Of a stretch of DNA of 64,000 bases, positions 3,908 to 56,840 are shown piece after piece. The stretch lies in the NCBI RefSeq assembly GCF_022965805.1, contig NC_133101.1, positions 18,943,054 to 19,007,053 on the forward strand, given 5' to 3'. The first letter of the stretch is position 1. Each line of letters starts with the position of its first letter. A model generated the notes under the pieces. The model was not told the DNA's origin, did no database searches, and saw only the letters and a program-made list of their open reading frames with translations. The DNA comes from Primulina eburnea. Its lineage: Eukaryota > Streptophyta > Magnoliopsida > Lamiales > Gesneriaceae. The position numbers and the translations under genes were made by a program.

Positions 3908-3917
3908 TCGCGCAGAC

Positions 3918-3927
3918 TATAAAAATA
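3918..3927 (+). promoter_or_regulatory. Candidate TATA box after the hairpin array
   Basis: The sequence tataaaaata begins 10 bases after the last hairpin and is followed by a pyrimidine-rich run (tttctttttctcttcccc), a typical plant core-promoter arrangement. The env-position ORF starts 279 bases downstream. Promoter activity is inferred from sequence only. Confidence 0.4.
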
Positions 3928-10886: not shown

Positions 10887-13800
10887 GACGGCCATTTCTA
10901 GCAACTTCAAATGCTTTAATTAATTGTCGAAATGGAATAATGAAATTGTCTTTTGGAAATATGACTCTAGAACTTAATGTGTTTAATTTATGTAAACAAC
11001 CAAGTATTAATGAAAATGAAAATGAATATGATAATGAAATTGAAATTGAAACAATTGTGGAAGAAAATATACAAGAAGAAAACTTAAATCAACAATCTGA
11101 AGTTTTTTCAGTAGAAAGTTTTGAGTCTGAAAATAATTTTAAAGAAGATGATAATACAAAACTTGAATTAAAAGCTTTACCATTAGAATTGAAATATGTA
11201 TTTCTTGGTCAAAATAAAACATTTCTTGTTGTAATTTCTTGTACTCTTCTACCAAATCAAGAAGAAGATTTAATTCAATTACTTAAAAAATATAAAAATG
11301 CAATTGGATGGACTTTGAAAGATGTAAAAGGTATGAATCCTTTAATTTGTACACATAAAATTCACTTGGAAGAAAATGCTAAAACGTATCAACAACCACA
11401 AAGAAGGTTAAATCCACATATGAAGGAAGTTGTTAAGAATGAAGTATTAAAACTATTAGACGCTGGAATTATCTATCAAATCTCAGATAGTAAATGGGCA
11501 AGTCCAACACAAGTAGTACCTAAAAAGTCAGGCATCACTGTTATAAAAAATGAAAAGGGAGAGTTATTACAAGCTAGGATTCCATCTAGTTGGCGTATAT
11601 GTATTGATTATAGAAAATTAAATGACGCAACTAGAAAAGATCATTTCCCACTACCATTTTTAGATCAAATTATAGAAAAAGTAGTAGGAAATTCTTATTA
11701 CTGTTTTCTTGATGGGTATTCGGGGTATTATCAAATACCTATATCATTAGAAGATCAAGAAAAAACTACTTTCACCTGTCCTTTCGGAAATTTTGCATTT
11801 AAAAGAATGCCATTTGGTTTATGTAATGTTCCGGCCACTTTTCAAAGATGCATGTTAAGTTTTTTTTGTGATATGATTGAAGAATTTGTAGAAGTTTTTA
11901 TGGATGATATAACTGTTTTTGGAAACTCATTTGAAAATTGTCTTAAAAATCTAGAAGAAGTATTAAAAAGATGTGAAGAAAAAAATCTTGTTTTAAATTG
12001 AGAAAAATGTCATTATATGGTTAAATCTGGGATTGTCTTAGGACATGTGATATCTGAAAAAGGAATTGAAGTTGATAAAGCCAAAGTTGATGTTATTGCT
12101 AATTTAACATCACCAAAAACAATCAAAGAAGTTCGATCATTTTTGGGTCATGCAGGATTTTATAGAAGGTTTATAAAAAATTTCAGCATAATATCTAAAC
12201 CAATTTCAAATCTTTTAACAAAAGATACACAATTTGAATGGACTCAAAAATGTGAAAATGCTTTTAAAAAAATAATTAATCTTTTAATTACATCACCTTT
12301 TTTACAACCTCCAGATTGGTCTTTACCATTTGAATTAATGTGTGGTGCAAGTGATTATGCTATAGGAGCTGTGTTAGGACAAAGAAAAGAAGGAAAACCT
12401 TATGCAATTTATTATGCTAGTAGAACATTAAATAGTGCTCAAATAAATTATTCAACTACTGAAAAAGAATTACTTTCAGTAGTATTTGAATTAGATAAGT
12501 TTCGATCTTATTTAATCGGTTCTACTACTATTGTTTACACAGATCATTCTGTCGTAAAATATTTATCAAATAAACAAGATGCTAAGCCAAGATTAATACG
12601 GTGGATTTTATTGTTACAAGAATTTGATATTATAATTAAAGATAAAAAAGAAAAAGAAAATGTTGTAGCCGATCATTTATCTAGAATAACGGCTGAATCA
12701 TCTCATAATGAAATACCAATAAATGAAAATTTTCCAGATGATCAGTTGTTTTATGCTACTATTATGCCATGGTTTTCTAACATTGTAAATTTTCTTGTGA
12801 CAAATAAAATGCCTTCTCATTGGAATTCACAGGATAAGAATAAATTCTTGATAGAAGTTAAAAAATTTTATTGGGATGATCCTTACTTATTTAAGTATTT
12901 TTCTGACCAAATTTTTCGACGATGCGTACCTGACAATGAAGTAAAGAATGTTATTAAATTTTGTCATTCTGAAGCATGTGGGGGTCATTTTTCATACAAT
13001 AAAACAGCTACAAAAATCTTACAATGTGGATTTTATTGGCCGTCTTTATTCAAAGATACGCATTTATTTTGCAAATCTTGTGAAAACTGTCAGAAGATGG
13101 GATCAATTTCAAAACGCAACATGATGCCTTTAAATCCAATCATAATTATTGAAATATTTGATAGTTGAGGGATAGATTTTATGGGTCCATTTCCATTATC
13201 TTTTGGATATACGTACATTTTAGTCGCTGTTGATTATGTTTCAAAATGGATTGAAGCAATTGCATGTAGAACTAATGATCATAAAGTTGTTATAAAATTT
13301 TTAAAAGAAAATATTTTTAGCCGATTTGGAATACCTAGAGCAATAATTAGTGATGGGGGAAGTCATTTTATAAATAAATCATTTTCTTCTTTGTTAAGAA
13401 AATATGGCATTACACATAAAGTTTCTACTCCATATCATCCTCAAAGTAATGGTCAAGTTGAACTTGCAAATAGAGAAATAAAACAAATTTTAGAAAAAAC
13501 AGTTAATTCAAATCGAAAAGATTGGTCTTTAAGATTAACTGATGCATTATGGGCATATAGAACTGCATTTAAAACATCATTAGGGATGTCACCATATAGG
13601 TTAGTTTTTGGTAAATATTGTCATTTACCGGTTGAACTTGAACATAAAGCTTATTGGGCAATAAAAGCATTTAATATTAATTTAGATGATGCATCTAAAT
13701 TAAGAAAATTGCAAATAAATGAACTTGAAGAATTAAGAAATGATGCATATGAAAATTCAAAGATTTATAAAGATAAAACTAAAGCCTTTCATGATAAAAA

Positions 13801-14053
13801 TATTATGAGAAAGTCATTTGAACTTGGACAAAAAGTTTTGCTTTATAACTCTCGTTTGCATATATTTCAAGGTAAACTAAGATCGAGGTGGTCAGGACCA
13901 TTTATAGTCAATTTTGTTTATCCTCATGGTGCTGTTGATATTGAAAATCCCAAAAATAATGATGTGTTTAAAGTTAATGGACAAAGACTTAAGCCTTTTA
14001 TAGAAAATGAAATTCTTAATGATGAGTTTATGCCTTTATATGATCCACAATAG
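10887..14053 (+). pseudogene. pol: Element A pol remnant: protease end, RT, RNase H, integrase
   Basis: One reading frame, starting in the middle of the protease, is interrupted by only two stops, both TGA where a tryptophan codon is expected (11999-12001 and 13166-13168). Motifs include [11 protein letters not shown] near 11900, RNase [10 protein letters not shown] near 12541, integrase zinc region about 12960-13095, IDFMGPF near 13172 and PYHPQSNGQ near 13429. The stop at 14051-14053 is the natural end of pol. Codon use is strongly A/T-rich. Apart from the two stops it is nearly identical to element B pol, which is broken at other positions. Confidence 0.93.
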
Positions 14054-14080
14054 TTGTTGATATTTTCATTTTGTTTTTGC

Positions 14081-14082
14081 AG
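14081..14082 (+). promoter_or_regulatory. Candidate splice acceptor before the cysteine-rich ORF (copy A)
   Basis: A pyrimidine-rich run ends in ttttgtttttgcag 28 bases after the pol stop, and the element B copy has the same sequence at 52190-52191. It would suit a spliced message that places the downstream ORF behind the leader. Inference from sequence only. Confidence 0.4.
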
Positions 14083-14191
14083 ATTCTAGTTCATTTCCCG
14101 GTTAAGTGGCGGATAACGGTACTCCGTGACTGTCTAAGTCGGTTCTTTAGTTTTCCCAAAATAATTGAAATATATATATAATAATAATAAT

Positions 14192-14717
14192 ATGGATGCG
14201 TGTATTATGAATCATCGTAAATATTTTTCTTGTTTACCTGATAATGAGTTGAAAAAATTTATAAAGCTAGATGTGAGCGGCTAAGGTTGATAATGTCATA
14301 TGGAATACCGAGTGATGTCCGTTTGATAATTGAAGCAAAAGTCCGGTTGGTTGGGGAAGCAAGTGAAATAATAATAAGACATATGCCAGGATTTGGTAAA
14401 AGTACATATGCCAAAAAGCGAAGAGCTAAACGTATAGGTGGATGTCATAAATGTGCAAGGTGGACTTGTAATGGGAAATGCAAAAATGTTGGAATGACAT
14501 CAATGAATAGAGAAGATAAAATTTTATTCATTAAGAATGGTCTGAGTAAAGAGCCTTTGGATAATTTTCTAGAGGTTCTTGATACGCATTCTAGTGGATT
14601 TGTGCAAAATGAACTTCTTAAACTATGGTGGCAATTTCAACATGAGGAATATCAATATGGACGGTGGAATCAGCCTTACAAAGATCCTACTGTAGTAACA
14701 CATGTCTATTTAGATAA

Positions 14718-14718
<1 letters not shown>
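14192..14718 (+). pseudogene. Cysteine-rich, basic-motif protein (carlavirus CRP-like), copy A
   Basis: The frame begins at the ATG at 14192 but loses one A near 14250, so the first part runs into a stop. From 14287 the frame is open to the codons for VYLDK at 14718 and then into a TA microsatellite. It encodes the basic motif GKSTYAKKRRAKR followed by a small C-x2-C-x4-C-x3-C cluster (CHKC...C...C), then a 65-residue tail rich in aromatic residues. A basic stretch followed directly by a cysteine cluster is the hallmark of the nucleic-acid-binding proteins of carlaviruses (Pfam viral NABP), which bind RNA or DNA and affect silencing. Similarity is by recalled motif only. It is not a retroviral protein and not an ordinary gag knuckle (no CCHC spacing). 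Confidence 0.6.
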
Positions 14719-14791
<73 letters not shown>

Positions 14792-14803
14792 TTATCTAAA
14801 TCA
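14706..14803 (+). repeat. TA microsatellite inside a larger palindrome
   Basis: About 70 bases of (ta)n are flanked by exact inverted copies of atttagataagta and tacttatctaaat. In element B the corresponding place holds about 130 bases of unique sequence (52856-52984), so copy A has replaced that segment with a fold-back. Confidence 0.85.
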
Positions 14804-14975
14804 GAGGAAGATGTGATCCACAATCACAACTGCGCTGTATATATTTGTTTTAATTGTGTCATTTTTATTTTCTTTTAATAATAATAGTTTCCTGTTCAAA
14901 TATTGACTTTTAGCATGTTACGCTTATAAATTCATATGCTGTGATCTAACAATTACAGAAAACACATTTCTCAAC

Positions 14976-15604
14976 ATGTCAACGTCCACGGTAAGTAAAA
15001 TAAAAAAAATTTGTGTATTTTGTGGATCTAGTGCAGGAAAAGATTCAATTTATGAAGAAGTAGCAGAAAAACTTGGAGTAACACTTGCTAAAAAAAGATT
15101 CATTTGGTATATGGTGGTGGTGAAGTTGGCCTCATGGGAAAAGTTGCAAAAGCTGCGCATGCAGGTGGAAGTGAAGTCTTAGGCATTATTCCGATTACCT
15201 TAGCCAATCTTACATGACCAACAATAGGAGAAGAAATGAAAGTGGACAACATGTACTGAAAGAATTACTCAAATGATTGAACATTCAGATGCTTTCATTG
15301 CTTTGCCAGGAGGTTTCGGTACTTTGGAAGAAATATTTCATACTGTTTGTTGGGCACAATTAAATATCCACAATAAGCCAATTGGTTTGTTAAATGTTAA
15401 CAATTATTATGATAAACTGTTATCGTTTCTTGATGATGTTGTGGAATAGGGATTTATTTCATTAGCTTCGCGAAGGATGTTAGTTTCTGCTACAAGTGAA
15501 GGTGAACTTATTGATTTACTGCAAGGATTTAGTCATGAACCAGATCCATTCTTATCTCAACTTAATTGGCCAACATCCAAGAGTAAGAAAAGAAAATTCA
15601 TGTG
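14976..15604 (+). pseudogene. LOG: LOG-family cytokinin phosphoribohydrolase, decayed copy A
   Basis: Counterpart of the intact gene at 53158-53787. The start (ICVFCGSSAGK) is clear. A one-base deletion near 15094 shifts the frame, and further damage follows: a TGA in the codons after NLT, an extra base near 15253 and a TAG replacing glutamine near 15447. The catalytic-site motif PGGFGTLEE is still readable at about 15306-15332. There are no introns. It lies within element A between the cysteine-rich ORF and the 3' LTR. It cannot produce a full enzyme. Confidence 0.9.
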
Positions 15605-17061
15605 ATGCTAAACTTGTGATTCAACGGTATGTTTTTAATTTTTTTTTTTAAGGTATGAATAATTTCCTTTTCTTCTTCTCTTCTTAGTTTTTTTTATTAT
15701 ATAAAAATAAAAATATGTAGTAATAATAATAATACTTTTTAGTTCAATGTCGAGTAAGGTGTCAGTAAAATGCACCTGAGACGCATTAGTTAATAATTAT
15801 CGGAAAATCACAATACACTAGATTTTAATATTCATTATGTTCAAATTACAGACTACAAGAAAAATTAGTTTTCATATGTACCAATTTATATACATATATA
15901 TTTTGATCAATTAATATAAAATATATAATAGATGTGTTTATTTATTTACATATATGTATATATTTGTGTGTGTTTTCAAATAAAATAATTTCTAAAATTT
16001 TTATAAGAATATAGTTAAAAGATATTGTTTGTATGGTTGTTAACATGTATAATTGAAAGAATTTTTTTGTAAAAATATAATATATACTCACACATCTTTT
16101 GTGAGTAAGTGGTGATAAATGAGAAAACAATTAATAAATTTTTATTGATTATTAAAAAATTGTTAATTTCAAGAATATAACTCTCCTAAAAAAAATATTT
16201 ATTGAAAAAAAAAAAAAAAAAAGACGTAAATAAATAACGGACTGCAAAATATTTTATTCATTGTATTTTTTTCTAGATTTGATTGATGTATTATCAATGT
16301 GTTCTAAAAACATCAATCAATGTGTTTTTTTTAAAAAAAAAACCAAAAAACAAAAAGATTTGTTTGTGCTAGATAAGTTCAAAGGTAGTCGGATGTATCC
16401 GTTATATAAAATATTTATATATATATAAATATAAATTTATGGTAGAATGTTTGGATAAAAAAAATTTATGTTATTGTAAAATTTTGCAGTCACGTTATTT
16501 AAAAAAAACAAAAAAATATAGAAAGAAAAAAAAAGAAGAAAAGGGGATTTTATTCTTTGTAAATTTTCCTATTTTATTTTCAATATTAGTTTATTTAATT
16601 GTATGCTTTAATACTTAGTCTTTTTCTATGAGAGTTAATATTCATTCCAACTCCATGAGTGAAAACTAGCTATTCATTAAATATTTTGACCTGAAAAAAT
16701 ATATGGAGTTGAGGCTTTTACAAAAATATTCTTGATATTATACATGTTATGGTGGGTGGCGTGAATTATCTTTTTGACTATATTATTATAAAAAATTTTA
16801 GAAATTTAAAAATTATATATATTATTAATTTTTATATTATGTTAAAATATGAATAAAAACACATCAAATTATATATTATTATATTAAACAAAAATATGTA
16901 TATATATATGTATATATATATATATATAAAATCGGTATATGATTTTGTTTTTAAAATGAATATGTTTGTATTTGAATATATAAAAAGAATAAAGAATCTA
17001 GGTTGTGATTTTTCGATAAATTTTTTTACTAAGGGACTAGTAATAAGATAGTGTGGGGGTG
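15605..17061 (+). other. Non-coding stretch between LOG and 3' LTR, element A
   Basis: Very A/T-rich sequence with homopolymer and TA runs and no credible gene. It is collinear with 53788-55223 in element B. It ends with the polypurine tract gtgtgggggtg at about 17051-17061. Confidence 0.8.
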
Positions 17062-18757
17062 TGATGAAACTTAAAATTAATAATTTATTATATGTTAAAA
17101 CCTGTATTTTAAAATTTTAAGTTTCATTAAAATTATAAATTATGTTATTTTAGTATTGTTTGTTTATATTTAAATGTCTTAAAATTTGTTTTATTTTCAG
17201 GTTTTCTACGTGTTGTTAAAATAATGATAACTCAAGCTAGAAAATTCAAATGGAGGTGACTCAAACATGGTTGGAATCCTTGAGAAATTATCTACAACTT
17301 TGCAGAAGACATGATTGCCTAAAAAGTTCATTAAGATGATCAAATTGTGCAAATATCAAAAGGATGACAAATTTACTTTTACCATGACCAGCATATAGTA
17401 AAAAATTCACAACTATTTCAATATTTAACCAAATGAGGTGAATCAAGTGCCAAATTCATCTACAGAAAATTCCCCACATGTTTTCCATTTTGATGAGATT
17501 CAAATTAGGTGATTAAAGTCGTGGAACAAGGCATTGAGTAGTGAAGGGACATGGAATTAGAGTTGGAGGAGACAAAGAATACTATTACAACTACATGGCA
17601 GTAATAAAATTTTTGACTCTTTCTCTCATTTGGCCTATAAATAGGGGCCTTGTGCTAGTTTGAGAATCATTCTATCTCATTGTAAAATATAGTGTGAGTG
17701 TGTATCAAAGTTCTAAGTTCCAATATATTTTCTTTCATTCTCTCAACTATGAGTGATATTTTAGTGTTGATCAAAAGTAAGTTCATGGCAAGCTAAATCT
17801 ATTATGTCAAGGTGAAAAGGATGCATTCTTGGTGAAGTAAGATTGTTTATATTTTGTATATTCTATCTTTATTTCTTTTCATTTAGCTAACTTCTTTTTA
17901 TTGTAGGTAAAAATGAATTATTTGTTGTTATCAATTTACATCAAATACTTGATACCATTGAAGTGGTTATCTTGATTTGTTGTTTAATTTTGATACAATA
18001 AATATTTCATCAATTATTATTATTGTTATATTATATACATATATATATATATATCATTATTTTATAATATTTCATTTAGACGATAGCATGGCTCTGCCGA
18101 TTGTTCTAAATGAAATATTATGATTTGATACTAACATCTAACAATCTAACATTTACTTTATCGCAACTAACTTTTATTTTCCGCATCTAACATTTACTTT
18201 ATCACAACTAACTTTTATTTTTCCACATCTAACATTTATTTTATCGCAATTCGCAACTAACTTTTATTTTTCGCATCTAACTTTTACTTTACCGCAACTA
18301 ACTTATTAAATCAATATATTTCATTTAGGCAATAGCGTGGCTCTGCCGGTTGTTCTAAATGAAATATAATGATTTAATTTAACATTTACTTTATGCAATT
18401 ATATATTTATATGATTATAACTATAATCATAGGTACCATATATAAAATATCGGTTAACTCGGTATGTTCTATAGTGGGAGCTATATTATATTATGTGTGT
18501 GTTTAATTTTCTTGGAATCATTATTTATGGTGGTTTCCTTTGTTTTACTTTTATTTAAACAATATTACATAAACCAAGAATAAAACCTCAAGCCTTGACA
18601 AAATTTATAATTTGTAAACTTCATTCTTGCATTTGGTAATCTATAAATTAATAAATTTAAACTCAAAATAACCTCTAAGTGGATCGATCTCGTACTTACG
18701 AAATATATTACTTGCAGACAACCTACACTTGAGTGAATTATTATTTAAGTAGTAGCA
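17062..18757 (+). repeat. 3' LTR of element A
   Basis: Begins tgatgaaactt and ends agtagca, 1696 bp, matching the LTRs of element B. It contains two stem-loops (18066-18119 and 18315-18367), with arms like tatttcatttag and ctaaatgaaata around a cgtggctctgcc-type centre. Between them are tandem repeats of about 30 bp built on cgcaactaacttttattt. Confidence 0.9.

Positions 18758-39217: not shown

Positions 39218-39220
<3 letters not shown>

Positions 39221-39284
<64 letters not shown>
39221..39284. repeat. TA microsatellite at the TATA position of the C LTR
   Basis: A run of about 64 bases of (ta)n. Aligned with the solo LTR, it occupies the place of gatatataaat, immediately downstream (minus strand) of the palindrome array. 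Confidence 0.75.
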
Positions 39285-39285
<1 letters not shown>

Positions 39286-39329
39286 CATGTAATTGATACG
39301 TGTCTCTCTTAAAATTTTTCCAAAGCCTC

Positions 39330-39610
39330 TCGCGCATATGCGTGTCCTCTCCTCGCGCATATGCGCGAGACCTACTGTCTCGGGGCCTAAGCTTCTCGAC
39401 AGCTCGCACATATGCGCGCCCCAAATCCGCGTATGTGCGCCGAGCACTTCACTTCAACCCGTAGGCTACTGGTCATCTCGTGCATGTACGCGCCTACGCA
39501 CCGCGCATGTGCGCCAAGTTTCTTGTCTGCGAAGTCATGCAGCTCAACACCTCGCGCATATGCGCGCCCTCACACCGCGCATATGCACGCAAAGTTCTGT
39601 CCGCGCACCA
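39330..39610. repeat. gcgcatatgcgc palindrome array, C 3' LTR
   Basis: About eight copies of cgcgcatatgcgcg-like palindromes, partly decayed, spaced 15-50 bp apart, as in the other LTRs of this family. Confidence 0.9.
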
Positions 39611-39827
39611 TGCTCGACTCAACAAGTTAAAATCCCGGTAACGAAATACTCCTTTTATAATTACATCAACTATCAATAAATCAATCTCAGATCACAGTGA
39701 TCAAATTTCAGGCATTACAATTCTCCCCCTCTAAGACACGATTTCGTCCCCGAAATCACAGGCAATCAAATCGTATCAAATGCAATAATCAGACAAAATA
39801 ATAGAAATTGAAAATAGAAGACTCACA

Positions 39828-44081: not shown

Positions 44082-44086
44082 CAATG

Positions 44087-45733
44087 TGATGAAACTTAAA
44101 ATTAATAATTTATTATATGTTAAAATCTGTATTTTAAAATTTTAAGTTTCATTAAAATTATAAATTATGTTATTTTAGTATTGTTTGTTTATATTTAAAT
44201 GTCTTACTAAATTTTTTTTATTTTCAGTTTTTTTACGTGTTGGTAAAATAATGATAACTCAAGCTAGAAAATTCAAATGGAGGTGACTCAAACATGGTTG
44301 GAATCCTTGAGAAGTTATCTACAACTTTGCAGAAGACATGATTGCCTAAAAAGCTCATTAAGATGATAAAATTGTGCAAAGATCAAAAGGAGGACACATT
44401 TACTTTTACTATGACCAGCATTTAGTAAAAAAATCATAACTATTTCAATATTTATCCAAATGAGGTGAATCAAGTGGCCAAACTCATCTACAGAAAATTC
44501 CCCACATGTTTGTGGTTTTAATCAGAGTCAAATTCGGTGAGCAAAGTCGTGGAACAAGGCATTGAAAGAAGGGACATGGAATTGGAGTTGAGGAGACAAA
44601 GAATACTATTACAACTACATGGCATTAATAGAATTTTTGACCCTTTCTCTCATTTGGCCGATAAATAGAGGTCTTATGCTAGCTTGAGAATCATTCTATC
44701 TCATTGTAAAATATAGTGTGAGTGTGTATCAAAGTTCTAAGTTCCAATATATTTTCTTTCATTTTCTCAACTATGAGTGATATTTTAGTGTTGATCAAAA
44801 TTAAGTTCATGGCAAGCTAAATCTATTATGTCAAGGTGAAGAGGATGCATTCTTAGGTGAAGTAAGATTGTTTATAGTTTGTACATTCTTTCTTTATTTC
44901 TTTTCATTTAGCTAACTTATTTTCATTGTAGGTATAAAAATGAATTACTTGTTGTTATCAATTTACATCAAATGCTTGATACCATTGAAGTGGTTATCTT
45001 GATTTGTTGTTTAATTTTGATACAATAAATATTTCATCACTTATTATTATTGTTATATTATATATATATAGATATATATATTTATATAATAATATCATAA
45101 TATTTCATTTAGACAATAGCGTGGCTCTGCCGGTTGTTCTACATGAAATATTATGATTAATACTAACAATCTAACTTTTACTTTCTCGCAACTAACTTTT
45201 ATTTTCCGCATCTAACTTTTACTTTCTCGCAACTAACTTTTATTTTTCGCAACTAACTTTTTCTTTACCGCAACTAACTTATTAAATCAATATATTTCAT
45301 TTAGGCAATAGCGTGGCTCTGCCGGTTGTTCTAAATGAAATATAGTGATTTAATTTTACATTTACTTTATGCAATTATATATTTATATAGTTATAACTAT
45401 AATCATAGGTATCATATATAAAATATCGGTTAATTCGGTATTTTCTATAGTGGGAACTATATTATATTATGTGTGTGTTTAATTTTCTTGGAACCATTAT
45501 TTATGGTGGTTTCCTTTGTTTTACTTTTAGTTAAACAATATTACATAAACCAAGAATAAATCCTCAAGCCTTGACAAAATTTATAATTTGTAAACTTTAT
45601 TCTTGCATTTGGTAATCTATAAATTAATAAATTTAAACTCAAAATAACCTCTCTGTGGATCGATCTCGTACTTACGAAATATATTACTTGCAGACAACCT
45701 ACACTTGGGTGAATTATTATTTAAGTAGTAGCA
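44087..45733 (+). repeat. 5' LTR of B
   Basis: 1647 bp, tgatgaaactt to agtagca. It contains two stem-loops (45100-45152 and about 45292-45343) around tandem repeats built on cgcaactaacttttattt. The first 130 bases differ from the 3' LTR at only a few positions by eye. Confidence 0.93.
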
Positions 45734-45739
45734 AGTTTT

Positions 45740-45757
45740 TGACGCCGTTGCCGGGGA
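45740..45757 (+). other. Primer-binding site, tRNA-Asp type (B)
   Basis: tgacgccgttgccgggga follows the LTR after the spacer agtttt, one base from the tggcgccgttgccgggga consensus of Athila/Tat elements. Confidence 0.92.
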
Positions 45758-45914
45758 GGTATAAATTAAGTTTATATTTGTTATTTATGTTTTATTTATA
45801 AGTATTGTGTTTTTTTTTCTTTTTGTTTGAGTGTTTGGAGTCGAAAAAAAAGTGGTAGACTTATTCGAATATCTGAAAATAATTTAAATATGGATGATAA
45901 TTCAAATAATCAAG

Positions 45915-45955
<41 letters not shown>

Positions 45956-46890
45956 CAAGAACATGATCAATTAAGAACACTTAGGCACCATATGAACCCT
46001 ATTAGAACCAGTGCCCCATCTTGTTTAGTTTTTCCTCCCGATACATCTAATTTCAACTTTAAACCTCAAATTATTCAACTTTTACCAAATTTTCATGGCT
46101 TAGATTCTGAAAATCCATATTTGCATCTAAGAGAATTTGAGGAAGTTTGTAACACTTATAATGATCAAAATTGTAGCATGGATATAGTTCGATTAAAGAT
46201 TTTTCCTTTTTCTTTAAAAGATAAAGCTAAAACATGGCTACAAAATTTGAGATCGAGTTCAATAAGGTCATGGGAAGAAATGCAACAACAATTTCTTAAA
46301 AAGTTTTTTCCTTCCCATAGAACAAACTCTTTTTAAAAGACAAATTACAACTTTTTCTCAAAAACAAGGAGAAACATTTTATCAATGTTGGGATAGATAT
46401 AAAGAATTACTTAATACATGCCCACATCATGGTTTTGAAACATGGAGAATAGTTTCTCACTTTTATGAAGGTCTTATACCAAAAGATAGGCAAATGATTG
46501 AATTCATGTGTAATGGAACTTTTGAAGATAAAAACCCAAATGAAGCTATGGAATATTTGGATTCATTAGCAGAAAATGCTCAAAATTGGGATAATATAGG
46601 CACAATAGAAACACCAACAACTAAAATCAATAATTCAACAAATGGGGGTGGTATCTATAATCTTAAAGATGATACAGATATTCAAGCTAAACTTGCATCT
46701 TTAGCAAGAAAAATTGAGTCATTAGAAATGAAAAAGAGTGGTCAATTGAAAAGTATTCAAGAAATTTTTTGTCATATATGTGATACACATGATCATGCTA
46801 CAAAAGATTGTCCAACATTACCTTCATTTAAAGAATGTCTCCATGAACAAGCAAACTATGTTAACAATTATAAAAAAGGTAAATTAACTT

Positions 46891-47878
46891 TAAATCCCTG
46901 ACAGGCTTTATAACTTTGTCGTCAGTCCCTATGTCAGAAAACTTGTGTTTCAACTCCCTGACATAATTGATTTATTATTTTAAACTCCCTAATGCTTAGC
47001 AAAATACTATAATACCCTTCTTGATTTCATGAAATCAAAGTACAAATTTATCTACATTTGGTATCAATTAGTATAAATCGAGCACTATAATATATTAACT
47101 GAGTATTTGAAATGTACAAAATCGAGCATTAAATACAATAGATCGAGTATTATTCTAGAAGTGCTCCATTTATGCTAGTACATGCTATTAGAACATGTAG
47201 TACATATTCCATTATTTTGAGTATACTCTTTAATTAATTGAGCATTAAATACAATAGATCGAGTATTATTCTAGAAGTGCTCCATTTATGCTAGTACATG
47301 ATATTAGAACATGTAGTACATATTCCATTATTTTGAGTATACTCTTTAATTAATTGAGCATTAAATACAATAGATCGAGTATTATTCTAGAAGTGCTCCA
47401 TTTATGCTAGTACATGCTATTAGAACATGTAGTACATATTCCATTATTTTGAGTATACTCTTTAATTAATTGAGTATTAAATACAATAGATCGAGTATTA
47501 TTCTAGAAGTGTTCCATTTATGCTAGTACATGCTCAATTTATTATAAAAATACTCATCTTCAGGCAGAAATGTCTCTAGTTCTAGGGGTAGTGCATATGT
47601 AGGATTGTTCACCATGACACGAGCATTATACGTTACATGAATTATTATTGACACAAAATTATGTTAATTTCGGCATAACATATCGTAAATTCAGTATAAT
47701 TCGTCTCCAATTAAGTACATAACTTGGATATTTGAGTATAAAATTGGAAAATGGAAAAAAAGGCATTTTAGTCAGTTTTTGTAGTTAGGGAGTTTAAACA
47801 AATAAATATTTGCATGTGGGGATCGAGAAAAAAAAACTTCTGACATAGGGACTGAAAAGGAAGTTCAGTTTGGATTTA
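46891..47878. mobile_element. MITE-like insertion with imperfect terminal inverted repeats
   Basis: About 988 bp interrupting B gag. The ends are inverted relative to each other: taaatcc...cagtccctatgtcagaa on the left and ttctgacatagggactg...ggattta on the right. A further inner match pairs taaactccctaa with ttagggagttta, giving imperfect inverted repeats of about 100 bp. It has no coding capacity and is absent from the normal gag continuity. I could not define a target duplication with certainty, so the superfamily is left open. Confidence 0.65.
47124..47540 (+). repeat. 116-bp tandem repeat, about 3.6 copies
   Basis: Units start at 47124, 47240, 47356 and 47472, exactly 116 bp apart, each beginning gagcattaaatacaatagat (gagtatt in the last). 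They differ at only a few bases. The array forms the core of the MITE-like insertion. Confidence 0.93.
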
Positions 47879-48764
47879 GGCATTTTAGAGCAACTCACCC
47901 TTATAAAAAACCAATACTAGATCCTTTTTCACCATCATATAATCCGGGATGGAAAAATCATCCTAATTTTAGTTGGAGGAATGATAATAATGCACAACCT
48001 TCCCAACAATATTTTCAAAATAACCAAAATCATCAAGGTTATATTCCTTATGTTACACCTCCAAGAAAAAACTTTGAAGATGTAATTCATGCATTTATCC
48101 AAAAGCAAGAGTCTATCAATATTCAAAACAGTCAATCTATGAGTGATTTGAAAGAAACTCTTGCAAAATTTGCATCTGCACTTAATATTCATGAAAAAGG
48201 AAAATTTCCATCTCAACCTCAACCTAATCCTAAAAATCAAAATCAAGAATTAAAAAATGAAAAAATTGATCAGATAAAATCTGTTATTACCCTTAGAAGT
48301 GGTAAAATAGTTAATGATCCATATATCAATGAAAACAAGGATCATTTAAAATCAAAGAGTAAGGATGATCATCCTGATACTTTTGAGAATGATGATACCT
48401 TAAATTCTAAGAATAATATGGTGAATGATAAATCATCTAAAATAGTAAATGAGTCAAATAAACCTCCACCATTTCCTCATGCATTAACAAATTATAAAAA
48501 ACAAAAAAGTGATTCTGATATCTATGAAGTTTTTAAACAAATAAAGATAAATATTCCATTATTAGATGCTATTAAACAAGTACCTTCCTATGCAAAATAT
48601 TTAAAAGACTTATGTACTGTGAAGAGAAAATTGCATGTGAAGAAGAAAGCATTCTTGGCTGAACAAGTAAGTTCTATTCTTCAAAATAATTCTAGTTTAA
48701 AATATAAAGATCCTGGTTGTCCAACAATTTCATGTATTATTGGAAAAAATAAAATTAAAAAGCT

Positions 48765-51700
48765 TTGTTAGATTTGGGAGCAAGTGTGAATTTACTACCT
48801 TATTCGGTTTATGAAAAATTTAATTTAGGAGAATTAAAACCCACTTCTGTTACTCTCTTACTGGCGGATAGGTCAATCAAAATACCTAGAGGTATTGTAG
48901 AAGATGTGTTGGTTCAAGTTGATAAATTCATATATCCTGTAGATTTTATTGTTTTAGATACACAACCAATAGAAGTACATAATGAAATTCCAGTAATATT
49001 GGGACGACCATTTCTAGCAACTTCAAATGCTTTAATTAATTGCCGAAATGGAATAATGAAATTGTCTTTTGGAAATATGACTCTAGAACTTAATGTGTTT
49101 AATTTATGTAAACAACCGAGTATTAATGAAAATGAAAATGAAGATGATAATGAAATTCAAACAATTGTGGAAGAAAATATACAAGAAGAAAACTTAAATC
49201 AACAATATGAAATTTTTTCAGTAGAAAGTTTTGAGTCTGAAAATAATTTTAAAGAAGATGATAATACAAAACTTGAATTAAAAGCTTTACCATTAGAATT
49301 GAAATATGTATTTCTTGGTCAAAATAAAACATTTCCTATTGTAATTTCTTCCACTCTTCTACCTAATCAAGAAGAAGATTTAATTCAATTACTTAAAAAA
49401 TATAAAAATGCAATTGGATGGACTTTGAAAGATATAAAAGGTATGAATCCTTTAATTTGTACACATAAAATTCACTTGGAAGAAAATGCTAAAACGTATC
49501 AACAACCGCAAAGAAGGTTAAATCCACATATGAAAGAAGTTGTTAAGAATGAAGTATTAAAACTATTAGACGCTGGAATTATCTATCCAATCTCAGATAG
49601 TAAATGGGTAAGTCCAACACAAGTAGTACCTAAAAAGTCAGGCATCACTGTTATAAAAAATGAAAAAGGAGAGTTATTACAAACTAGGATTCCATCTAGT
49701 TGGCGTATGTGTATTGATTATAGAAAATTAAATGATGCAACTAGAAAAATCATTTCCCACTACCATTTTTAGATCAAATTCTAGAAAAAGTAGCAGGAAA
49801 TTCTTATTATTGTTTTCTTGATGGGTATTCGGGGTATTATCAAATACCTATATCATTAGAAGATCAAGAAAAAACAACTTTCACTTGTCCTTTCGGAACT
49901 TTTGCATTTAAAAGAATGCCATTTGGTTTATGTAATGCTCCGGCTACTTTTCAAATATGCATGTTAAGTATTTTCAGTGATATGATTGAATAATATGTAG
50001 AAGTTTTTATGGATGATATAACTGTTTTTGGAAACTCGTTTGAAAATTGTCTTAAAAATCTAGAAGAAGTATTAAAAAGATGTGAAGAAAAAAATCTTAT
50101 TTTAAATTGGGAAAAATGTCATTATATGGTTAAATCTGGGATTGTCTTAGGACATGTGATATCTGAAAAAGGAATTGAAGTTGATAAAGCCAAAGTTGAT
50201 GTTATTGCTAATTTAACATCACCAAAAACAGTCAAAGAAGTTCGATCATTTTTGGGTCATGCAGGATTTTATAGAAGGTTTATAAAAAATTTCGGCATAA
50301 TATCTAAACCAATTTCAAATCTTTTAACAAAGGATACACAATTTGAATGGACTCAAAAATGTGAAAATGCTTTTAAAAAAATAATTAATCTTTTAATTAC
50401 ATCACCTATTTTACAACCTCCAGATTGGTCTTTACCATTTGAATTAATGTTTGATGCAAGTGATTATGCTATAGGAGCTGTGTTAGGACAAAGAAAAGAA
50501 GGAAAACCTTATGCAATCTATTATGCTAGTAGAACCTTAAATAGTGCCCAAATAAATTATTCAACTACTGAAAAAGAATTACTTTCAGTAGTATTTGCAT
50601 TAGATAAGTTTCGATCTTATTTAATTGGTTCTACTACTATTGTTTACACAGATCATTCTGCCGTAAAATATTTATCAAATAAACAAGATGCTAAGCCAAG
50701 ATTAATACGGTGGATTTTATTGTTACAAGAATTTGATATTATAATTAAAGATAAAAAAGGAAAAGAAAATGTTGTTGCCGATCATTTATCTAGAATAATG
50801 ACTGAATCATCTCATAATGAAATACCAATAAATGAAAATTTTCCAGATGATCAGTTGTTTTATGCTACTATTATGCCATGGTTTGCTAACATTGTAAATT
50901 TTCTTGTGACAAATAAAATGCCTTCTCATTGGAATTCACAGGATCAGAATAAATTCTTGATAGAAGTTAAAACATTTTATTGGGATGATCCTTACTTATT
51001 TAAGTATTGTCCTGACCAAATTTTTCGACGATGCATACCCGACAATGAAGTAAGTAATGTTATTAAATTTTGTCATTCTGAAGCATGTGGAGGTCATTTT
51101 TCATCCAATAAAACAGCTACAAAAATCTTACAATGTGGATTTTATTGGCCATCTTTATTCAAAGATACGCATTTATTTTGCAAATCTTGTGAAAACTGTC
51201 AGAAGATGTGATCAATTTCAAAACGAAACATGATGCCTTTAAATCCAATCATAATTATTGAAATATTTGATAGTTGGGGGATAGATTTTATGGGTCCATT
51301 TCCATTATCTTTTGGATATAAGTACATTTTAGTCGCTGTTGATTATGTTTCAAAATGGATTGAAGCAATTGCATGTAGAACTAATGATCATAAAGTTGTT
51401 ATAAAATTTTTAAAAGAAAATATTTTTAGCCGATTTGGAATACCTAGAGCAATAATTAGTGATGGGGGAAGTCATTTTATAAATAAATCATTTTCTTCTT
51501 TGTTAAGAAAATATGGCATTACACATAAAGTTTCTACTCCATATCATCCTCAAAGTAATGGTCAAGTTGAACTTGCAAATAGAGAAATAAAACAAATTTT
51601 AGAAAAAACAGTTAATCCAAATCGAAAAGATTGGTCTTTAAGATTAACTGATGCATTATGGGCATATAGAACTGCATTTAAAACATCATTAAGGATGTCA

Positions 51701-52162
51701 CCATATAGGTTAGTTTTTGGTAAGCATTGTCATTTACCGGTTGAACTTGAACATAAAGCTTATTGGGCAATTAAAGCATTTAATATTAATTTAGATGATA
51801 CATCTAAATTAAGAAAATTGCAAATAAATGAACTTGAAGAATTAAGAAATGATGCATATGAAAATTCAAATATTTATAAAGATAAAACAAAAGCCTTTCA
51901 TGATAAAAATATTATGAGAAAGTCATTTGAAATTGGACAAAAAGTTTTACTTTATAATTCTCGTTTACATTTATTTCCAGGTAAACTAAGATCGAGGTGG
52001 TCAGGACCATTTATAGTCAAATTTGTTTATCCTCATGGTGCTGTTGATATTGAAAATCCCAAAAAAAATGATGTGTTTAAAGTTAATGGACAAAGACTTA
52101 AACCTTTTATAGAAAATGAAATTCTTAATGATGAGTTTATGCCTTTATATGATCCACAATAG
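48765..52162 (+). pseudogene. pol: Element B pol: protease, RT, RNase H, integrase
   Basis: Protease active site LLDLGASVNLLPYSVY at about 48765. One base is missing near 49749 in RT (ATRK then frame change), and a TAA replaces a codon at about 49991. [11 protein letters not shown] is near 50007, RNase [10 protein letters not shown] near 50649, and an integrase zinc region near 51070-51205. A TGA occurs at 51209-51211, then integrase core IDFMGPF near 51281, ISDGGSHF near 51457 and PYHPQSNGQ near 51539. The natural end is at 52160-52162. The lesions differ from those of element A. Integrase is the best preserved part. Confidence 0.93.
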
Positions 52163-52189
52163 TTGTTGATATTTTCATTTTGTTTTTGC

Positions 52190-52191
52190 AG
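52190..52191 (+). promoter_or_regulatory. Candidate splice acceptor before the cysteine-rich ORF (copy B)
   Basis: cattttgtttttgcag, 28 bases after the pol stop and conserved with element A at 14081-14082. It could create a spliced message for the downstream ORF, as for env genes. Confidence 0.4.
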
Positions 52192-52277
52192 ATTCTAGTT
52201 CATTTCTCGGTTAAGTGGCGGATAACGGTACTCCGTGACTGTCTAAGTCGGTTTCTTCAGTTTTCCCAAAATAATTG

Positions 52278-52325
<48 letters not shown>

Positions 52326-52329
<4 letters not shown>

Positions 52330-52855
52330 ATGCGTGTATTATGAATCTTCGTAAATATTTTGATTGTTTACCTGATAATGCGTTGAAAAAAATTTATAAA
52401 GCTAGAAGTGAGCGGCTAAGGTTGATGATGTCATATGGCATACCGAGTGATGTTCGTTTGATAATTGAAGCAAAAGTCCGATTGGTTGGGGAAGCAAGTG
52501 AAATAATAATAAGACATATGCTAGGATTTGGTAAAAGCACATATGCTAAAAAGCGAAGAGCTAAACGTATAGGTGGATGTTATAAATGTGCAAGGTGGAC
52601 TTGTAATGGGAAATGCAAAATTTTGGAATGACGTCAATGAATAGAGAAGATAAAATTTTATTCATTAAGAATGGTCTGAGTAAAGAGCCTTTGGATAATT
52701 TTCTAGAGGTTCTTGATACGCATTCTAGTGGATACGTGCAAAATGAACTTCTTAAACTATGGTGGCAATTTCAACATGAGGAATATCAATATGGACGATG
52801 GAATCAGCCTTACAAAGATCCTACTGTAGTAACGCATGTCTATTTAGATAAGTAA
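52326..52855 (+). pseudogene. Cysteine-rich, basic-motif protein (carlavirus CRP-like), copy B
   Basis: From the ATG at 52326, directly after a TA run, 101 codons are open. Residues 38-50 (YGIPSDVRLIIEA) precede the basic motif at residues 70-81 (KSTYAKKRRAKR) and cysteines at 85, 88, 93 and 97 (C-x2-C-x4-C-x3-C). One base is missing after the last cysteine (near 52621), and the rest of the protein continues in the next frame from 52613 to 52855 (KILFIKNGLSKEPLDNF ... YGRWNQPYKDP). Copy A is broken at a different place, so the family ORF was longer than either surviving piece. The basic-plus-cysteine arrangement recalls carlavirus nucleic-acid-binding proteins; homology needs a profile search. 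Confidence 0.62.
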
Positions 52856-53137
52856 ATATATATACAATCTCGTCTTGGGAATCTGACGTTAAAAGACCCT
52901 GTTTGCCAATTTATAAGAAAATTGGATGGGAAGCATATCCTCGACTCATAGAAGGCGTTGAAGCCGTTACTGAACGTAAAATCAGAGGAAGATGTGAGCC
53001 ACAATCACAACTACGCTGTATATATTTGTTTTAATTTTGTCATTTTTATTTTCTTTTAATAATAATAATTTCATGTTCAAATATTGACTTTTGGCATGTT
53101 ACGCTTATAAATTCATATGTTGTGATCTAACAATTAC
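52856..53137 (+). other. Spacer between cysteine-rich ORF and LOG, with a coding-like segment
   Basis: About 52880-53020 reads without a stop as a protein-like stretch (for example KKIGWEAYPRLIEGVEAVTE) in a frame different from the end of the preceding ORF. It may be a further part of the cysteine-rich ORF or of another captured gene. Element A lacks it. The rest is A/T-rich leader. Confidence 0.45.
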
Positions 53138-53139
53138 AG
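53138..53139 (+). promoter_or_regulatory. Candidate splice acceptor before LOG (copy B)
   Basis: tgtgatctaacaattacag ends 18 bases before the LOG ATG. It contains a ctaac branch-site-like word, though close to the AG. The same sequence occurs in element A (AG at 14957-14958). Confidence 0.4.
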
Positions 53140-53157
53140 AAAAACATATTTCTCAAC

Positions 53158-53787
53158 ATGTCAACGTCCACGGTAAGTAAAATAAAAAATATTTGTGTAT
53201 TTTGTGGATCTAGTGCAGGAAAAGATTCAATTTATGAAGAAGTAGCAGAAAAGCTTGGAATAACACTTGCTAAAAATAAGATTCATTTGGTATATGGTGG
53301 TGGTGAAGTTGGCCTCATGGGAAAAGTTGCAAAAGCTGCGCATGCAGGTGGAAGTGAAGTCTTAGGCATTATTCCGATTACCTTAGCCAATCTTACAGGA
53401 CCAACAATAGGAGAAGAAATGAAAGTGGACAACATGTATGAAAGAATTACTCAAATGATTGAACATTCAGATGCTTTCATTGCTTTGCCAGGAGGTTTCG
53501 GTACTTTGGAAGAAATATTTCATACTGTTTGTTGGGCACAATTAAATATCCACAATAAGCCAATTGGTTTGTTAAATGTTAACAATTATTATGATAAACT
53601 GTTATCGTTTCTTGATGATGTTGTGGAACAGGGATTTATTTCATTAGCTTCGCGAAGGATGTTAGTTTCTGCTACAAGTGAAGGTGAACTTATTGATTTA
53701 CTGCAAGGATTTAGTCATGAACCAGATCCTTTCTTATCTCAACTTAATTGGCCAACATCCAAGAGTAAGAAAAGAAAATTCATGTGA
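53158..53787 (+). CDS. LOG: LOG-family cytokinin riboside 5'-monophosphate phosphoribohydrolase, retroelement cargo
   Basis: Intact 209-codon ORF. LOG enzymes release active cytokinin bases from their ribotides in the cytosol and nucleus. Visible features are an N-terminal Rossmann strand (ICVFCGSSAGK, residues 12-22), [12 protein letters not shown] (44-55), NMYERITQM with R96 (92-100) and the signature PGGFGTLEE (111-119), followed by [16 protein letters not shown]. Usual plant LOGs have an RK pair where this has R96-I97, so activity is not assured. Length is normal and the basic tail KSKKRKF could act in nuclear entry. Plant LOG genes have several introns; this has none, as expected for capture from mRNA. 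It is inside element B between the cysteine-rich ORF and the 3' LTR, and intact although the other genes of B are broken. Confidence 0.9.
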   Translation: MSTSTVSKIKNICVFCGSSAGKDSIYEEVAEKLGITLAKNKIHLVYGGGEVGLMGKVAKAAHAGGSEVLGIIPITLANLTGPTIGEEMKVDNMYERITQMIEHSDAFIALPGGFGTLEEIFHTVCWAQLNIHNKPIGLLNVNNYYDKLLSFLDDVVEQGFISLASRRMLVSATSEGELIDLLQGFSHEPDPFLSQLNWPTSKSKKRKFM

Positions 53788-54588
53788 TGCTAAACTTGCG
53801 ATTCAACGGTATGTTTTTAATGTTTTTTTTTAAGGTATAAATAATTTCTTCTTCTTCTTCTTCTTCTTCTCTTCTTAGTTTTTTTTTATTATATAAAAAT
53901 AAAAATATGTAGTAATAATAATAATACTTTTTAGTTCAATGTCGAGTAAGGTGTCAGTGAAATGCACCTGAGACGCATTAGTTAATAATTATCGGAAAAT
54001 CACAATACACTAGATTTTAATATTCATTATATTCAAATTACAGACTACAAGAAAAATTAGTTTTCATATGTACCAATTTATATACATATATATTTTGATC
54101 AATTAATATAAAATATATAATAGATGTGTTTATTTATTTAAATATATGTATATATTTGTGTGTGTTTTCAAATAAAATAATTTCTAAAATTTTTATAAGA
54201 ATATAGTTAAAAGATATGGTTTGTATGGTTGTTAACATGTATAATTGAAAGAATTTTTTTTGTAAAGTATAATATATACTCACACATCTTTTATGAGTAA
54301 GTGGTGAGAAATGAGAAAACAATTAGTAAACTTTTATTGATTATTAAAAAATGGTTAATTACAAGAATATAATTCCCCTAAAAAAATATTTATTGAAAAA
54401 CAAAGAAAAAGAAAAGATGTAAATAAATAACGGACTGCAAAATACTTTATTCATTGTAATATTTTTTTCAAGATTTGATTGATGTACTATCAATGTGTTC
54501 TTAAAAAAAAAAAACAAACAAACAAACAAAAAGATTTGTTTGTGCTAGATAAGTTTCAAAGGTAGTCGAATGTATCTGTTATATAAAT

Positions 54589-54623
<35 letters not shown>

Positions 54624-55223
54624 TATTTGTGGTAAAATGTTTGGAAAAAAAAAGTTTATGTTATTGTAAAATTTTGCAGTCACGTTATTTAAAAAATATA
54701 TATATAATAAAAAAAAGAAAAAGAAAAAGAAAGGGGATTTTATTCTTTGTAAATTTTCCTATTTTGTTTTTAATATTAGTTTATTTAATTGTCTGCTTTA
54801 ATACTTAGCCTTTTTCAATGAGAGTTAATATTCATTCCAACTCCATGAGTGAAAACTAGCTATTCATTAAATATTTTGACCTGAAAGAATATATGGAGTT
54901 GAGGCTTTTACAAAAATATTCTTGATATAGTACATGTTATGGTGGGTGGCGTGAATTATCTTTTTGACTATATTATTATAAAAAAATTTAAAAATTATAT
55001 ATATTGTTACTTTTTATATTATGTGAAAATAAGAATAAAAACACATCAAATTATATATTATTATATTAAACAATATATATATATATATATAAATCGGTAT
55101 ATGATTTTGTTTTTAAAATGTATATGTTTGTATTTGAATATATAAAAGGAATAAAGAATCTAGGTTGTGACTTTCCGATAAATTTTATTACTAAGAGACT
55201 AGTAATAAGATAGTGTGGGGGTG
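53788..55223 (+). other. Non-coding stretch between LOG and 3' LTR, element B
   Basis: A/T-rich, no supported gene, collinear with 15605-17061. Just after the LOG stop, caacggtatgttt looks like a splice donor and is conserved in copy A. A (ctt)n run lies near 53850 and a TA run near 54593-54620. It ends with the polypurine tract gtgtgggggtg at 55213-55223. Confidence 0.8.
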
Positions 55224-56835
55224 TGATAAAACTTAAAATTAATAATTTATTATATGTTAAAATCTGTATTTTAAAATTTTAAGTTTCATTAAAATTATAA
55301 ATTATGTTTTTTTAGTATTTTTTGTTTATATTTAAATGTCTTACTAAATTTGTTTTATTTTCAGTTTTTTTACGTGTTGGTAAAATAATGATAACTCAAG
55401 CTAGAAAATTCAAATGGAGGTGACTCAAACATGGTTGGAATCTTTGAGAAGTTCTCTACAACTTTGCAGAAGACATGATTGCCTAAAAAGCTCATTAAGA
55501 TGATCAAATTGTGCAAAGATCAAAAGGAGGACACATTTACTTTTACTATGACCAGCATTTAGTAAAAAAATCATAACTATTTCAATATTTATCCAAATGA
55601 GGTGAATCAAGTGGCCAAACTCATCTACAGAAAATTCCCCACATGTTTGTGGTTTTAATCAGAGTCAAATTCGGTGAGCAAAGTCGTGGAACAATGGCAT
55701 TGAAAGAAAGGACATGGAATTGGAGTTGAGGAGACAAAGAATACTATTACAACTACATGGCATTAATAGAATTTTTGACCTTTTCTCTCATTTGGCCTAT
55801 AATAGAGGCCTTGTGCTAGCTTGAGAATCATTCTATCTCATTGTAAAATATAGTGTTAGTGTGTATCAAAGTTCTAAGTTCCAATATATTTTCTTTCATT
55901 TTCTCAACTATGAGTGATATTTTAGTGTTGATCAAAAGTAAGTTCATGGCAAGCTAAATCTATTATGTCAAGGTGAAGAGGATGCATTCTTGGTGAAGTA
56001 AGATTGTTCATATTTTGTACATTCTTTCTTTATTTCTTTTCATTTAGCTAACTTATTTTCATTGTAGGTATAAAAATGAATTACTTGTTGTTATCAATTT
56101 ACATCAAATGCTTGATACCATTGAAGTGGTTATCTTGATTTGTTGTTTAATTTTGATACAATAAATATTTCATCACTTATTATTATTGTTATATTATATA
56201 TATATAGATATATATATATTTATATAATAATATCATAATATTTCATTTAGACAATAGCGTGGCTCTGCCGGTTGTTCTACATGAAATATTATGATTAATA
56301 CTAACAATCTAACTTTTACTTTCTCGCAACTAACTTTTATTTTTTGCATCTAACTTTTACTTTCTCGCAACTAACTTTTATTTTCCGCAACTAACTTTTT
56401 CTTTACCGCAACTAACTTATTAAATCAATATATTTCACTTATTAACTTTTTCTTTACCGCAACTAACTTATTAAATGAATATATTTATATAGTTATAACT
56501 ATAATCATAGGTACCATATATAAAATATCGGTTAATTCGATATTTTCTATAGTGGGAACTATATTATATTATGTGTGTGTTTAATTTTCTTGGAACCATT
56601 ATTTATGTTGGTTTCCTTTGTTTTACTTTTAGTTAAACAATATTACATAAACCAAGAATAAATCCTCAAGCCTTGACAAAATTTATAATTTGTAAACTTC
56701 ATTCTTGCATTTGGTAATCTATAAATTAATAAATTTAAACTCAAAATAACCTCTCTGTGGATCGATCTCGTACTTACGAAATATATTACTTGCAGACAAC
56801 CTACACTTGGGTGAATTATTATTTAAGTAGTAGCA
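55224..56835 (+). repeat. 3' LTR of B
   Basis: 1612 bp, tgataaaactt to agtagca. The first stem-loop is present (about 56235-56290). The second and part of the repeat region have been replaced by a duplicated piece of cttattaactttttc type near 56440-56475, so it is shorter than the 5' LTR. Confidence 0.93.
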
Positions 56836-56840
56836 CAATG

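What the first reader, a model, noticed from the sequence alone, without database searches (positions are those of the whole stretch)
52163..55223. Retrotransposon family that carries a viral-like cysteine-rich gene and a plant cytokinin gene as cargo
Seen: between integrase and the 3' LTR of element B (target duplication caatg, complete) lie a basic cysteine-rich ORF and an intact LOG ORF. Element A (14192-15604) has the same two genes in the same order at a different insertion site. Known: LOG enzymes make active cytokinins, and plant Ty3/gypsy elements sometimes carry extra ORFs here. Inference: the element captured both genes before at least two transpositions and may alter host cytokinin level or silencing. 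I know of no described element with this pair.
Basis: partly seen in the sequence, partly recalled or inferred. Interest (0 to 1): 0.92.

Follow-up and report, generated by a model that had tools for sequence, protein, structure and literature searches.

The report
Retrotransposon carrying viral and cytokinin-type genes
A family of plant jumping genes carries, between its integrase and its end repeat, a gene resembling a plant-virus silencing suppressor followed by a gene resembling a plant-hormone enzyme, and nearly all copies checked in this genome keep one or both, so the pair looks like a working part of the element rather than a stray passenger.

Summary
Confirmed, and larger than stated. 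Element B is a Ty3/gypsy element with two LTRs and a CAATG target duplication; between integrase and 3' LTR it carries a carlavirus-type nucleic-acid-binding (NABP/CRP) gene, frame-broken here, and an open LOG-type gene. A and B share no 3' flank. Of 59 integrase copies of this subfamily in the genome (Primulina eburnea assembly), found without regard to cargo, 57 have NABP within 3 kb and/or LOG within 6 kb downstream, 48 both. In a sister subfamily (LOG about 67% identical) 19 of 20 LOG-selected copies carry NABP. Integrase, NABP and LOG differ by similar dS (1.2-1.4) with dN/dS 0.07, 0.26 and 0.19: co-inherited under purifying selection. The pair recurs in a Citrus protein and probably in an unnamed relative. 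Relatives of the LOG group apart from host LOG3/LOG8; most have lost a lysine kept in host hits and, outside Primulina, most end in an EAR-like LxLxL. LOG-type (YgdH) domains in Citrus and Populus gypsy elements are in print; I found no report of the NABP or the pair. Effects on silencing, hormone or cell division are inferred, not shown.

The parts
44082..44086 (+). target site duplication CAATG, left
44087..45733 (+). 5' LTR of element B
45740..45757 (+). primer binding site-like TGACGCCGTTGCCGGGGA; likeness to the tRNA-Asp PBS of Athila is recalled, not tested
45827..46901 (+). two ORFs of the gag region (first one Retrotrans_gag PF03732; no significant match for the second), broken
46912..47865 (.). 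insert with imperfect inverted ends and a 116-nt tandem repeat, nested in B
48139..51211 (+). gag-protease-RT-RNase H frames, broken; Pfam matches (RT, RNase H, H2C2) only in 50009-51211
51230..52162 (+). integrase; no chromodomain found
52180..52191 (+). polypyrimidine-CAG, splice-acceptor-like; a like site lies between integrase stop and NABP in subfamily 2 (splicing inferred)
52208..52253 (+). noncoding block conserved between subfamilies; small hairpins predicted, no pair with a change on both sides
52326..52631 (+). NABP/CRP-type gene, frame-broken in this copy
52607..52855 (+). rest of the NABP gene, in another frame in this copy
53127..53139 (+). second acceptor-like site just before the LOG ATG; a like site in subfamily 2
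53158..53787 (+). LOG-type gene, 209 aa, open
53788..55223 (+). AT-rich spacer and PPT-like tract
55224..56835 (+). 3' LTR of element B
56836..56840 (+). target site duplication CAATG, right
10887..18757 (+). element A, 5'-truncated; 3' LTR 17062-18757
14192..14718 (+). NABP gene of A, broken in its N-terminal part
14976..15605 (+). LOG-type gene of A, broken by frameshifts and stops

Best explanation
A long-lived lineage of non-chromovirus (probably Athila-like) Ty3/gypsy elements whose env position holds a fixed two-gene accessory module: a CRP/NABP-type protein related to those of carlaviruses, then a LOG-type protein of a lineage of its own. Shown: position, order, near-universal occupancy, co-divergence and purifying selection. 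Inferred: each gene is translated from a spliced RNA made with its own acceptor site. The NABP-type protein works as viral CRPs do, as a silencing suppressor and/or nuclear regulator. The LOG-type protein either releases active cytokinin or, with its basic tail (and, in most relatives from other plants, an EAR-like end), acts in the nucleus. Together they would keep host cells dividing and silencing weak, so that new insertions reach dividing and germ-line cells.
For: 57 of 59 integrase copies, not selected for cargo, have NABP or LOG downstream, 48 both; LOG starts 1866-2073 nt after the integrase start in 49 of 59. 12 of 12 copies read over 3 kb have NABP. The sister subfamily has the same order in 19 of 20 LOG-selected copies. 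dS is alike: IN 1.38 (one pair), LOG 1.26-1.36, NABP 1.23-1.27, with dN/dS 0.07, 0.18-0.20 and 0.26-0.27. 57 of 80 subfamily-1 LOG hits have no stop in the matched stretch (counted by eye). Citrus P0182 is NABP plus a LOG tail (E 3e-11); Xanthoceras P0003 is LOG plus a gag-pro piece of this element type (E 2e-8). P0002 (LOG) and P0122 (NABP) lie on contigs of the same length, 1524 nt, from the same source. Acceptor-like sites sit at matching places in both subfamilies. Viral CRPs are described as silencing suppressors, and that of chrysanthemum virus B as a transcription factor causing hyperplasia (introduction of PMC12172455, passages). The three residues after PGGxGT are LEE in 103 and LKE in 3 of 106 matched element-query hits.
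Against: No transcript, protein or phenotype was examined. The residue after the motif arginine is K in 91 of 91 matched LOG8-query hits but M, I or L in 97 of 106 matched element-query hits, so LOG activity is doubtful. The EAR-like end is missing in the window's LOG and in the subfamily-2 LOGs printed, so it cannot act in this genome as far as read. The NABP model is poor (pLDDT 62.6) and the viral likeness rests mainly on a short Cys/Arg-rich core. Copies with open frames were favoured, since the searches score only the best candidates. Close-copy dN/dS values scatter from 0.13 to 1.38 on few changes.
Confidence: 0.6

Rival explanations
1. The cargo is maintained only for the element's own replication (nucleic-acid chaperone or export protein plus nucleotide-binding protein) and has no effect on host hormone or silencing.
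For: NABP-type proteins bind nucleic acid by family name. The lysine after the motif arginine is lost in 97 of 106 matched element-query hits, which may mean a nucleotide-binding role without cytokinin release. The Primulina LOGs read lack the EAR-like end.
Against: LxLxL in the last 14 residues of 94 of 120 element-query hits against 0 of 120 LOG8-query hits, and 2.8% in shuffled element tails, points to host nuclear partners in other plants; hits are related, so the count is not of independent events.
Confidence: 0.25
2. Chance passengers: the genes were picked up and are decaying hitch-hikers.
For: A's copies are broken and B's NABP is broken; 23 of 80 subfamily-1 LOG hits hold stops.
Against: Occupancy 57 of 59, dN/dS 0.18-0.27 at dS about 1.3, the pair also in Citrus.
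Confidence: 0.05
3. The NABP likeness is convergence of a basic zinc finger, not descent shared with flexivirus CRPs.
For: The best match of B to Carla_C4 spans 38 residues and B misses the Viral_NABP cut-off; the structure model is too weak to compare.
Against: 20 of 21 members scanned match Viral_NABP and 20 of 21 Carla_C4 at E up to 0.01, best 2.3e-8 and 1.5e-7; the Viral_NABP match in A covers residues 20-124 of the query.
Confidence: 0.1

Closest known systems
Ty3/gypsy consensuses with a YgdH (LOG-type) domain, Citrus sinensis, C. clementina, Populus trichocarpa (PMC9289625, sections 12 and 17 and passages read; it cites Steinbauerova 2011, not held)
   Same: LOG-type domain in plant Ty3/gypsy elements; Citrus and Populus proteins are among our hits
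   Different: No NABP or gene pair is mentioned in the parts read (its supplementary chart of all domains was not seen); our case is in Gesneriaceae with 57 of 59 occupancy
Phalaenopsis gypsy elements with an ALKBH5-like RNA demethylase (PMC9289625)
   Same: Host-type enzyme gene kept as an extra ORF in many copies
   Different: Different enzyme; no viral-type second gene named in the parts read; its activity was shown in vitro, ours is not tested
Athila-type elements with env-like ORF (PMC7264820, first of three parts and passages read)
   Same: Extra sense ORF between pol and 3' LTR; PBS-like sequence (likeness recalled)
   Different: Two genes with known-family domains instead of an env-like ORF
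Carlavirus/mandarivirus CRP or NABP (PMC12172455, passages)
   Same: Carla_C4 / Viral_NABP domain; a basic stretch beside a Cys cluster
   Different: Carried by a retrotransposon; conserved C-terminal extension in the plant family; function unknown
Host LOG enzymes (AtLOG3 2a33, AtLOG8 1ydh)
   Same: Sequence match of 213 and 177 bits, PGGxGTLEE motif; confident model, pLDDT 85, not compared with solved folds
   Different: Groups apart; RK changed to RI/RM/RL in most relatives; EAR-like tail in most relatives outside Primulina

Membership tests
LTR retrotransposon (Ty3/gypsy) | two LTRs flanked by target duplication | tested here: met
   (element B; other copies not checked)
LTR retrotransposon (Ty3/gypsy) | RT-RNase H upstream of integrase | tested here: met
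Chromovirus branch | chromodomain after integrase | tested here: not met
   only rve found in 51230-52162 at E up to 0.001; another element in the window does show PF00385
Athila lineage | place in an RT tree | not tested
   no RT reference set used; the name rests on recall of PBS and gag style
Athila lineage | env-like transmembrane ORF after pol | tested here: inconclusive
   the ORFs there are NABP- and LOG-type; transmembrane segments were not predicted
Carlavirus-type NABP/CRP | Carla_C4 / Viral_NABP domain above cut-off | tested here: met
   Carla_C4 for A and B; Viral_NABP above cut-off for A, below for B; 20 of 21 relatives match each at E up to 0.01
Carlavirus-type NABP/CRP | silencing suppression or nuclear action | not testable with these tools
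   none
LOG phosphoribohydrolase | PGGxGTxxE motif | tested here: met
LOG phosphoribohydrolase | RK pair seen in the five solved chains shown and in matched host hits | tested here: not met
   RI in the window LOG; RM 40, RI 29, RL 28, RK 7, other 2, unmatched 14 of 120; the role of the K is not known here
LOG phosphoribohydrolase | release of cytokinin base from nucleotide | not testable with these tools
   none

The most novel reading that the evidence does not exclude
Eudicot genomes carry an ancient retrovirus-like lineage that manipulates its host with a two-gene module, a flexivirus-type CRP plus a LOG relative that in most lineages is tagged with an EAR-like nuclear tail, driving proliferation and weak silencing; and flexivirus CRPs and the element gene share one origin, with the direction of transfer (virus to element or element to virus) open.
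Probability: 0.3. Interest if true: 0.9.

Novelty: new variant of a known kind. Interest (0 to 1): 0.74.

Why it matters
Gag-pol is considered sufficient for LTR retrotransposition, and what extra ORFs in plant elements do is mostly unknown (PMC7264820). That makes it directly testable whether a retrotransposon steers host cell division or silencing. It also warns that genome annotations naming such proteins LOG3-like (P0001 in Primulina eburnea) count element genes as host cytokinin genes.

Tried and rejected
Segmental duplication of A and B: rejected, similarity ends at the LTR end on the one side testable. Recent host-LOG capture: spoken against by the tree, with cautions: hosts were one LOG3 and eight LOG8, the element rows were best hits of the element query, and one outgroup row and P0108 were flagged as odd or long. 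A viral contig source: the IMG/VR scans gave no NABP relative, and six LOG hits at 39-45% identity that were not followed up. Rfam: nothing above gathering score in 52100-53200; the best matches (mir-297, E 0.029 and 0.081) lie on the TA repeat. Structured leader: conserved sequence, but none of 12 predicted pairs has a change on both sides. NABP fold: model too poor to search; no fold search was run for either model. Viral CRP tree: no viral CRP sequences were at hand, so the direction of transfer is untested. LTRs and target duplication were checked for B alone. P0179 (labelled Clostridioides difficile) was taken as probable contamination but stayed in alignment A1. In the dN/dS script the integrase pairs with L017 had only 28 codons and were not used.

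Full report
What is there. Element B in the window has two LTRs (44087-45733, 55224-56835; K2P 0.027 over 1608 sites) and the same five bases, CAATG, on both sides. Its integrase ORF ends at 52162. Between integrase and 3' LTR lie a basic Cys-rich ORF matching Carla_C4 (3.7e-8) and an open LOG-type ORF (PF03641, 7.2e-37). Element A (10887-18757) has the same order but is cut at its 5' side, and both its cargo genes are broken. Similarity of A and B ends at the 3' LTR end. A and B are 97.2% identical in RT to IN, 91.7% in the IN-LOG gap, 99.0% in LOG (619 aligned sites), 94.2% in the spacer and 93.4% in the 3' LTR, gaps not counted.

B is not a coding-complete element. Gag and pol are split into several ORFs, an insert with a 116-nt tandem repeat lies in the gag region, and NABP changes frame after the Cys cluster.

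Where it comes from. Contig C1 of the window's assembly is 65,783,404 bases, the same as the longest contig listed for P0001, a LOG3-like protein of Primulina eburnea, 99% identical. C8 likewise matches P0008. Primulina is in Gesneriaceae, Lamiales.

Copies. An integrase search scored 128 of 55,000 candidates: 59 at 93-100% identity (subfamily 1, with A and B) and 69 at 83-84% (subfamily 2). LOG search: 150 scored of 1384, 80 of them at 83% or more, the other 70 at 68-69%. NABP search: 150 scored of 1248, 93 at 76% or more, 57 at 58-61%. Joining coordinates, 54 of 59 subfamily-1 integrase copies have an NABP hit within 3 kb and 51 a LOG hit within 6 kb; 57 have at least one, 48 both, 2 neither. 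B itself counts as LOG only, because its broken NABP did not reach the scored list. Of the 6 that count as NABP only, A, L037 and L046 do hold a frame-broken LOG; the other 3 were not read. Twelve of the 57 copies other than A and B, about every fifth down the list, were read: 12 of 12 have NABP, 11 of 12 have LOG within 3 kb, and the twelfth has a LOG hit 5.5 kb on. Some of these LOG and NABP genes are frame-broken. Seen the other way, 67 of 93 NABP hits have a LOG hit within 2 kb and 67 of 80 LOG hits have an NABP hit within 2 kb upstream.

Subfamily 2. Twenty LOG places, about every seventh of the 150 scored (of 1042 candidates), were read in 10-kb stretches. 19 of 20 have NABP upstream and 19 of 20 some integrase; L019 has neither. 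Many have open 181-aa NABP and 212-aa LOG frames.

Selection. Between B (A for NABP) and subfamily 2, dS is 1.26-1.36 for LOG (4 pairs), 1.23-1.27 for NABP (3 pairs, 142 codons) and 1.38 for IN (one pair); dN/dS is 0.18-0.20, 0.26-0.27 and 0.074. Between close copies the ratio scatters from 0.13 to 1.38 on few changes. Similar dS suggests that the three genes have travelled together; low ratios say both cargo genes were under constraint.

Beyond this genome. NABP search: 67 hits of 81 candidates, with named eudicots Orobanche, Rhamnella, Parasponia and Citrus. Citrus P0182 runs from NABP into a LOG tail (48% over 46 residues, E 3e-11), Xanthoceras P0003 joins LOG and a gag-pro piece (E 2e-8), and Primulina P0006 and P0008 join IN or RNase H to LOG. 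P0002 and P0122, LOG at 79% and NABP at 74%, both sit on a 1524-nt contig of the same source, probably the same one. Rosids and asterids are both represented, so the genes are old in such elements or have moved between species; these data do not decide.

The LOG. Thirty rows (the window, three subfamily-2 copies, 26 best hits from other sources) form one group (99/92) apart from host LOG3 plus eight LOG8 (96/88), with two bacterial outgroups. That the 26 sit in elements is inferred from the grouping, the copy numbers and the cases above, not shown for each; and as best hits of the element LOG they were likely to group with it. PGGxGTLEE is kept. The residue after the motif arginine is K in 91 of 91 matched LOG8-query hits (29 of 120 unmatched) but M, I or L in 97 of 106 matched element-query hits, K in 7 (14 of 120 unmatched). 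LxLxL in the last 14 residues: 94 of 120 against 0 of 120; shuffled element tails 2.8%. A basic cluster in the last 25: 108 of 120 against 20 of 120. The reading of LxLxL as an EAR motif that binds TOPLESS, and of KKRK as a nuclear signal, is recalled. The window's LOG and the subfamily-2 LOGs read end in the basic run without LxLxL, so this part of the idea does not apply to the Primulina copies read.

Expression. Both subfamilies show a polypyrimidine-CAG tract between integrase stop and NABP and an acceptor-like CAG just before the LOG ATG, and a conserved noncoding block, CGGTTAARTGGCGGATAACGGTACTCCGTGACT with few changes, between integrase and NABP. Spliced messages for genes in this position are reported for Bagy2 (PMC7264820). 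Splicing here is inferred.

How it may work. Viral CRPs of this kind are described as silencing suppressors, and that of chrysanthemum virus B also as a transcription factor inducing hyperplasia (introduction of PMC12172455, passages). LOG proteins release active cytokinin (established knowledge). Two genes that both favour cell division or weaken silencing would help an element reach dividing cells. This is a hypothesis; no function was measured.

Print. PMC9289625 (sections 12 and 17 and passages read) reports the YgdH domain in Citrus and Populus gypsy consensuses and does not mention NABP in the parts read; its supplementary chart of all domains was not seen. Searches for the pair or for NABP in retrotransposons: searches gave no paper; others gave 3, 6 and 2; two listed 15 of 40 and 10 of 50. 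None of the listed titles or passages read (PMC3136472, PMC11963269, PMC7264820) names the pair. Most subscription papers are not held, among them Steinbauerova 2011, so absence from print is not established.

Noticed in passing
window 540-5345: A related Ty3/gypsy element (pol 65% identical to B) has a Transposase_32 (PF20167, 6e-38) ORF after its integrase where B has NABP and LOG.
   Followed up: partly
window 46912-47865: Insert in B with imperfect inverted ends and a 116-nt unit repeated about three and a half times, like a nested DNA element.
   Followed up: partly
window 37791-39719 and 57335-58881: 93-97% identical direct repeats on both sides of B, with a reverse-strand pol frame (41311-43434) between; B seems to sit inside another retrotransposon.
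   Followed up: no
window 14976-15605 and 53158-53787: LOG is 99.0% identical between A and B although LTRs are 93.4% and the IN-LOG gap 91.7%; selection or recombination between copies may explain it.
   Followed up: partly
window 28515-29324: Frame with SH3_Tf2-1 and chromodomain, a chromovirus integrase fragment.
   Followed up: no
P0108, P0031 and others: LOG-type proteins of Malvaceae genomes come in many entries and large clusters (up to 327 members), suggesting element amplification there too.
   Followed up: no
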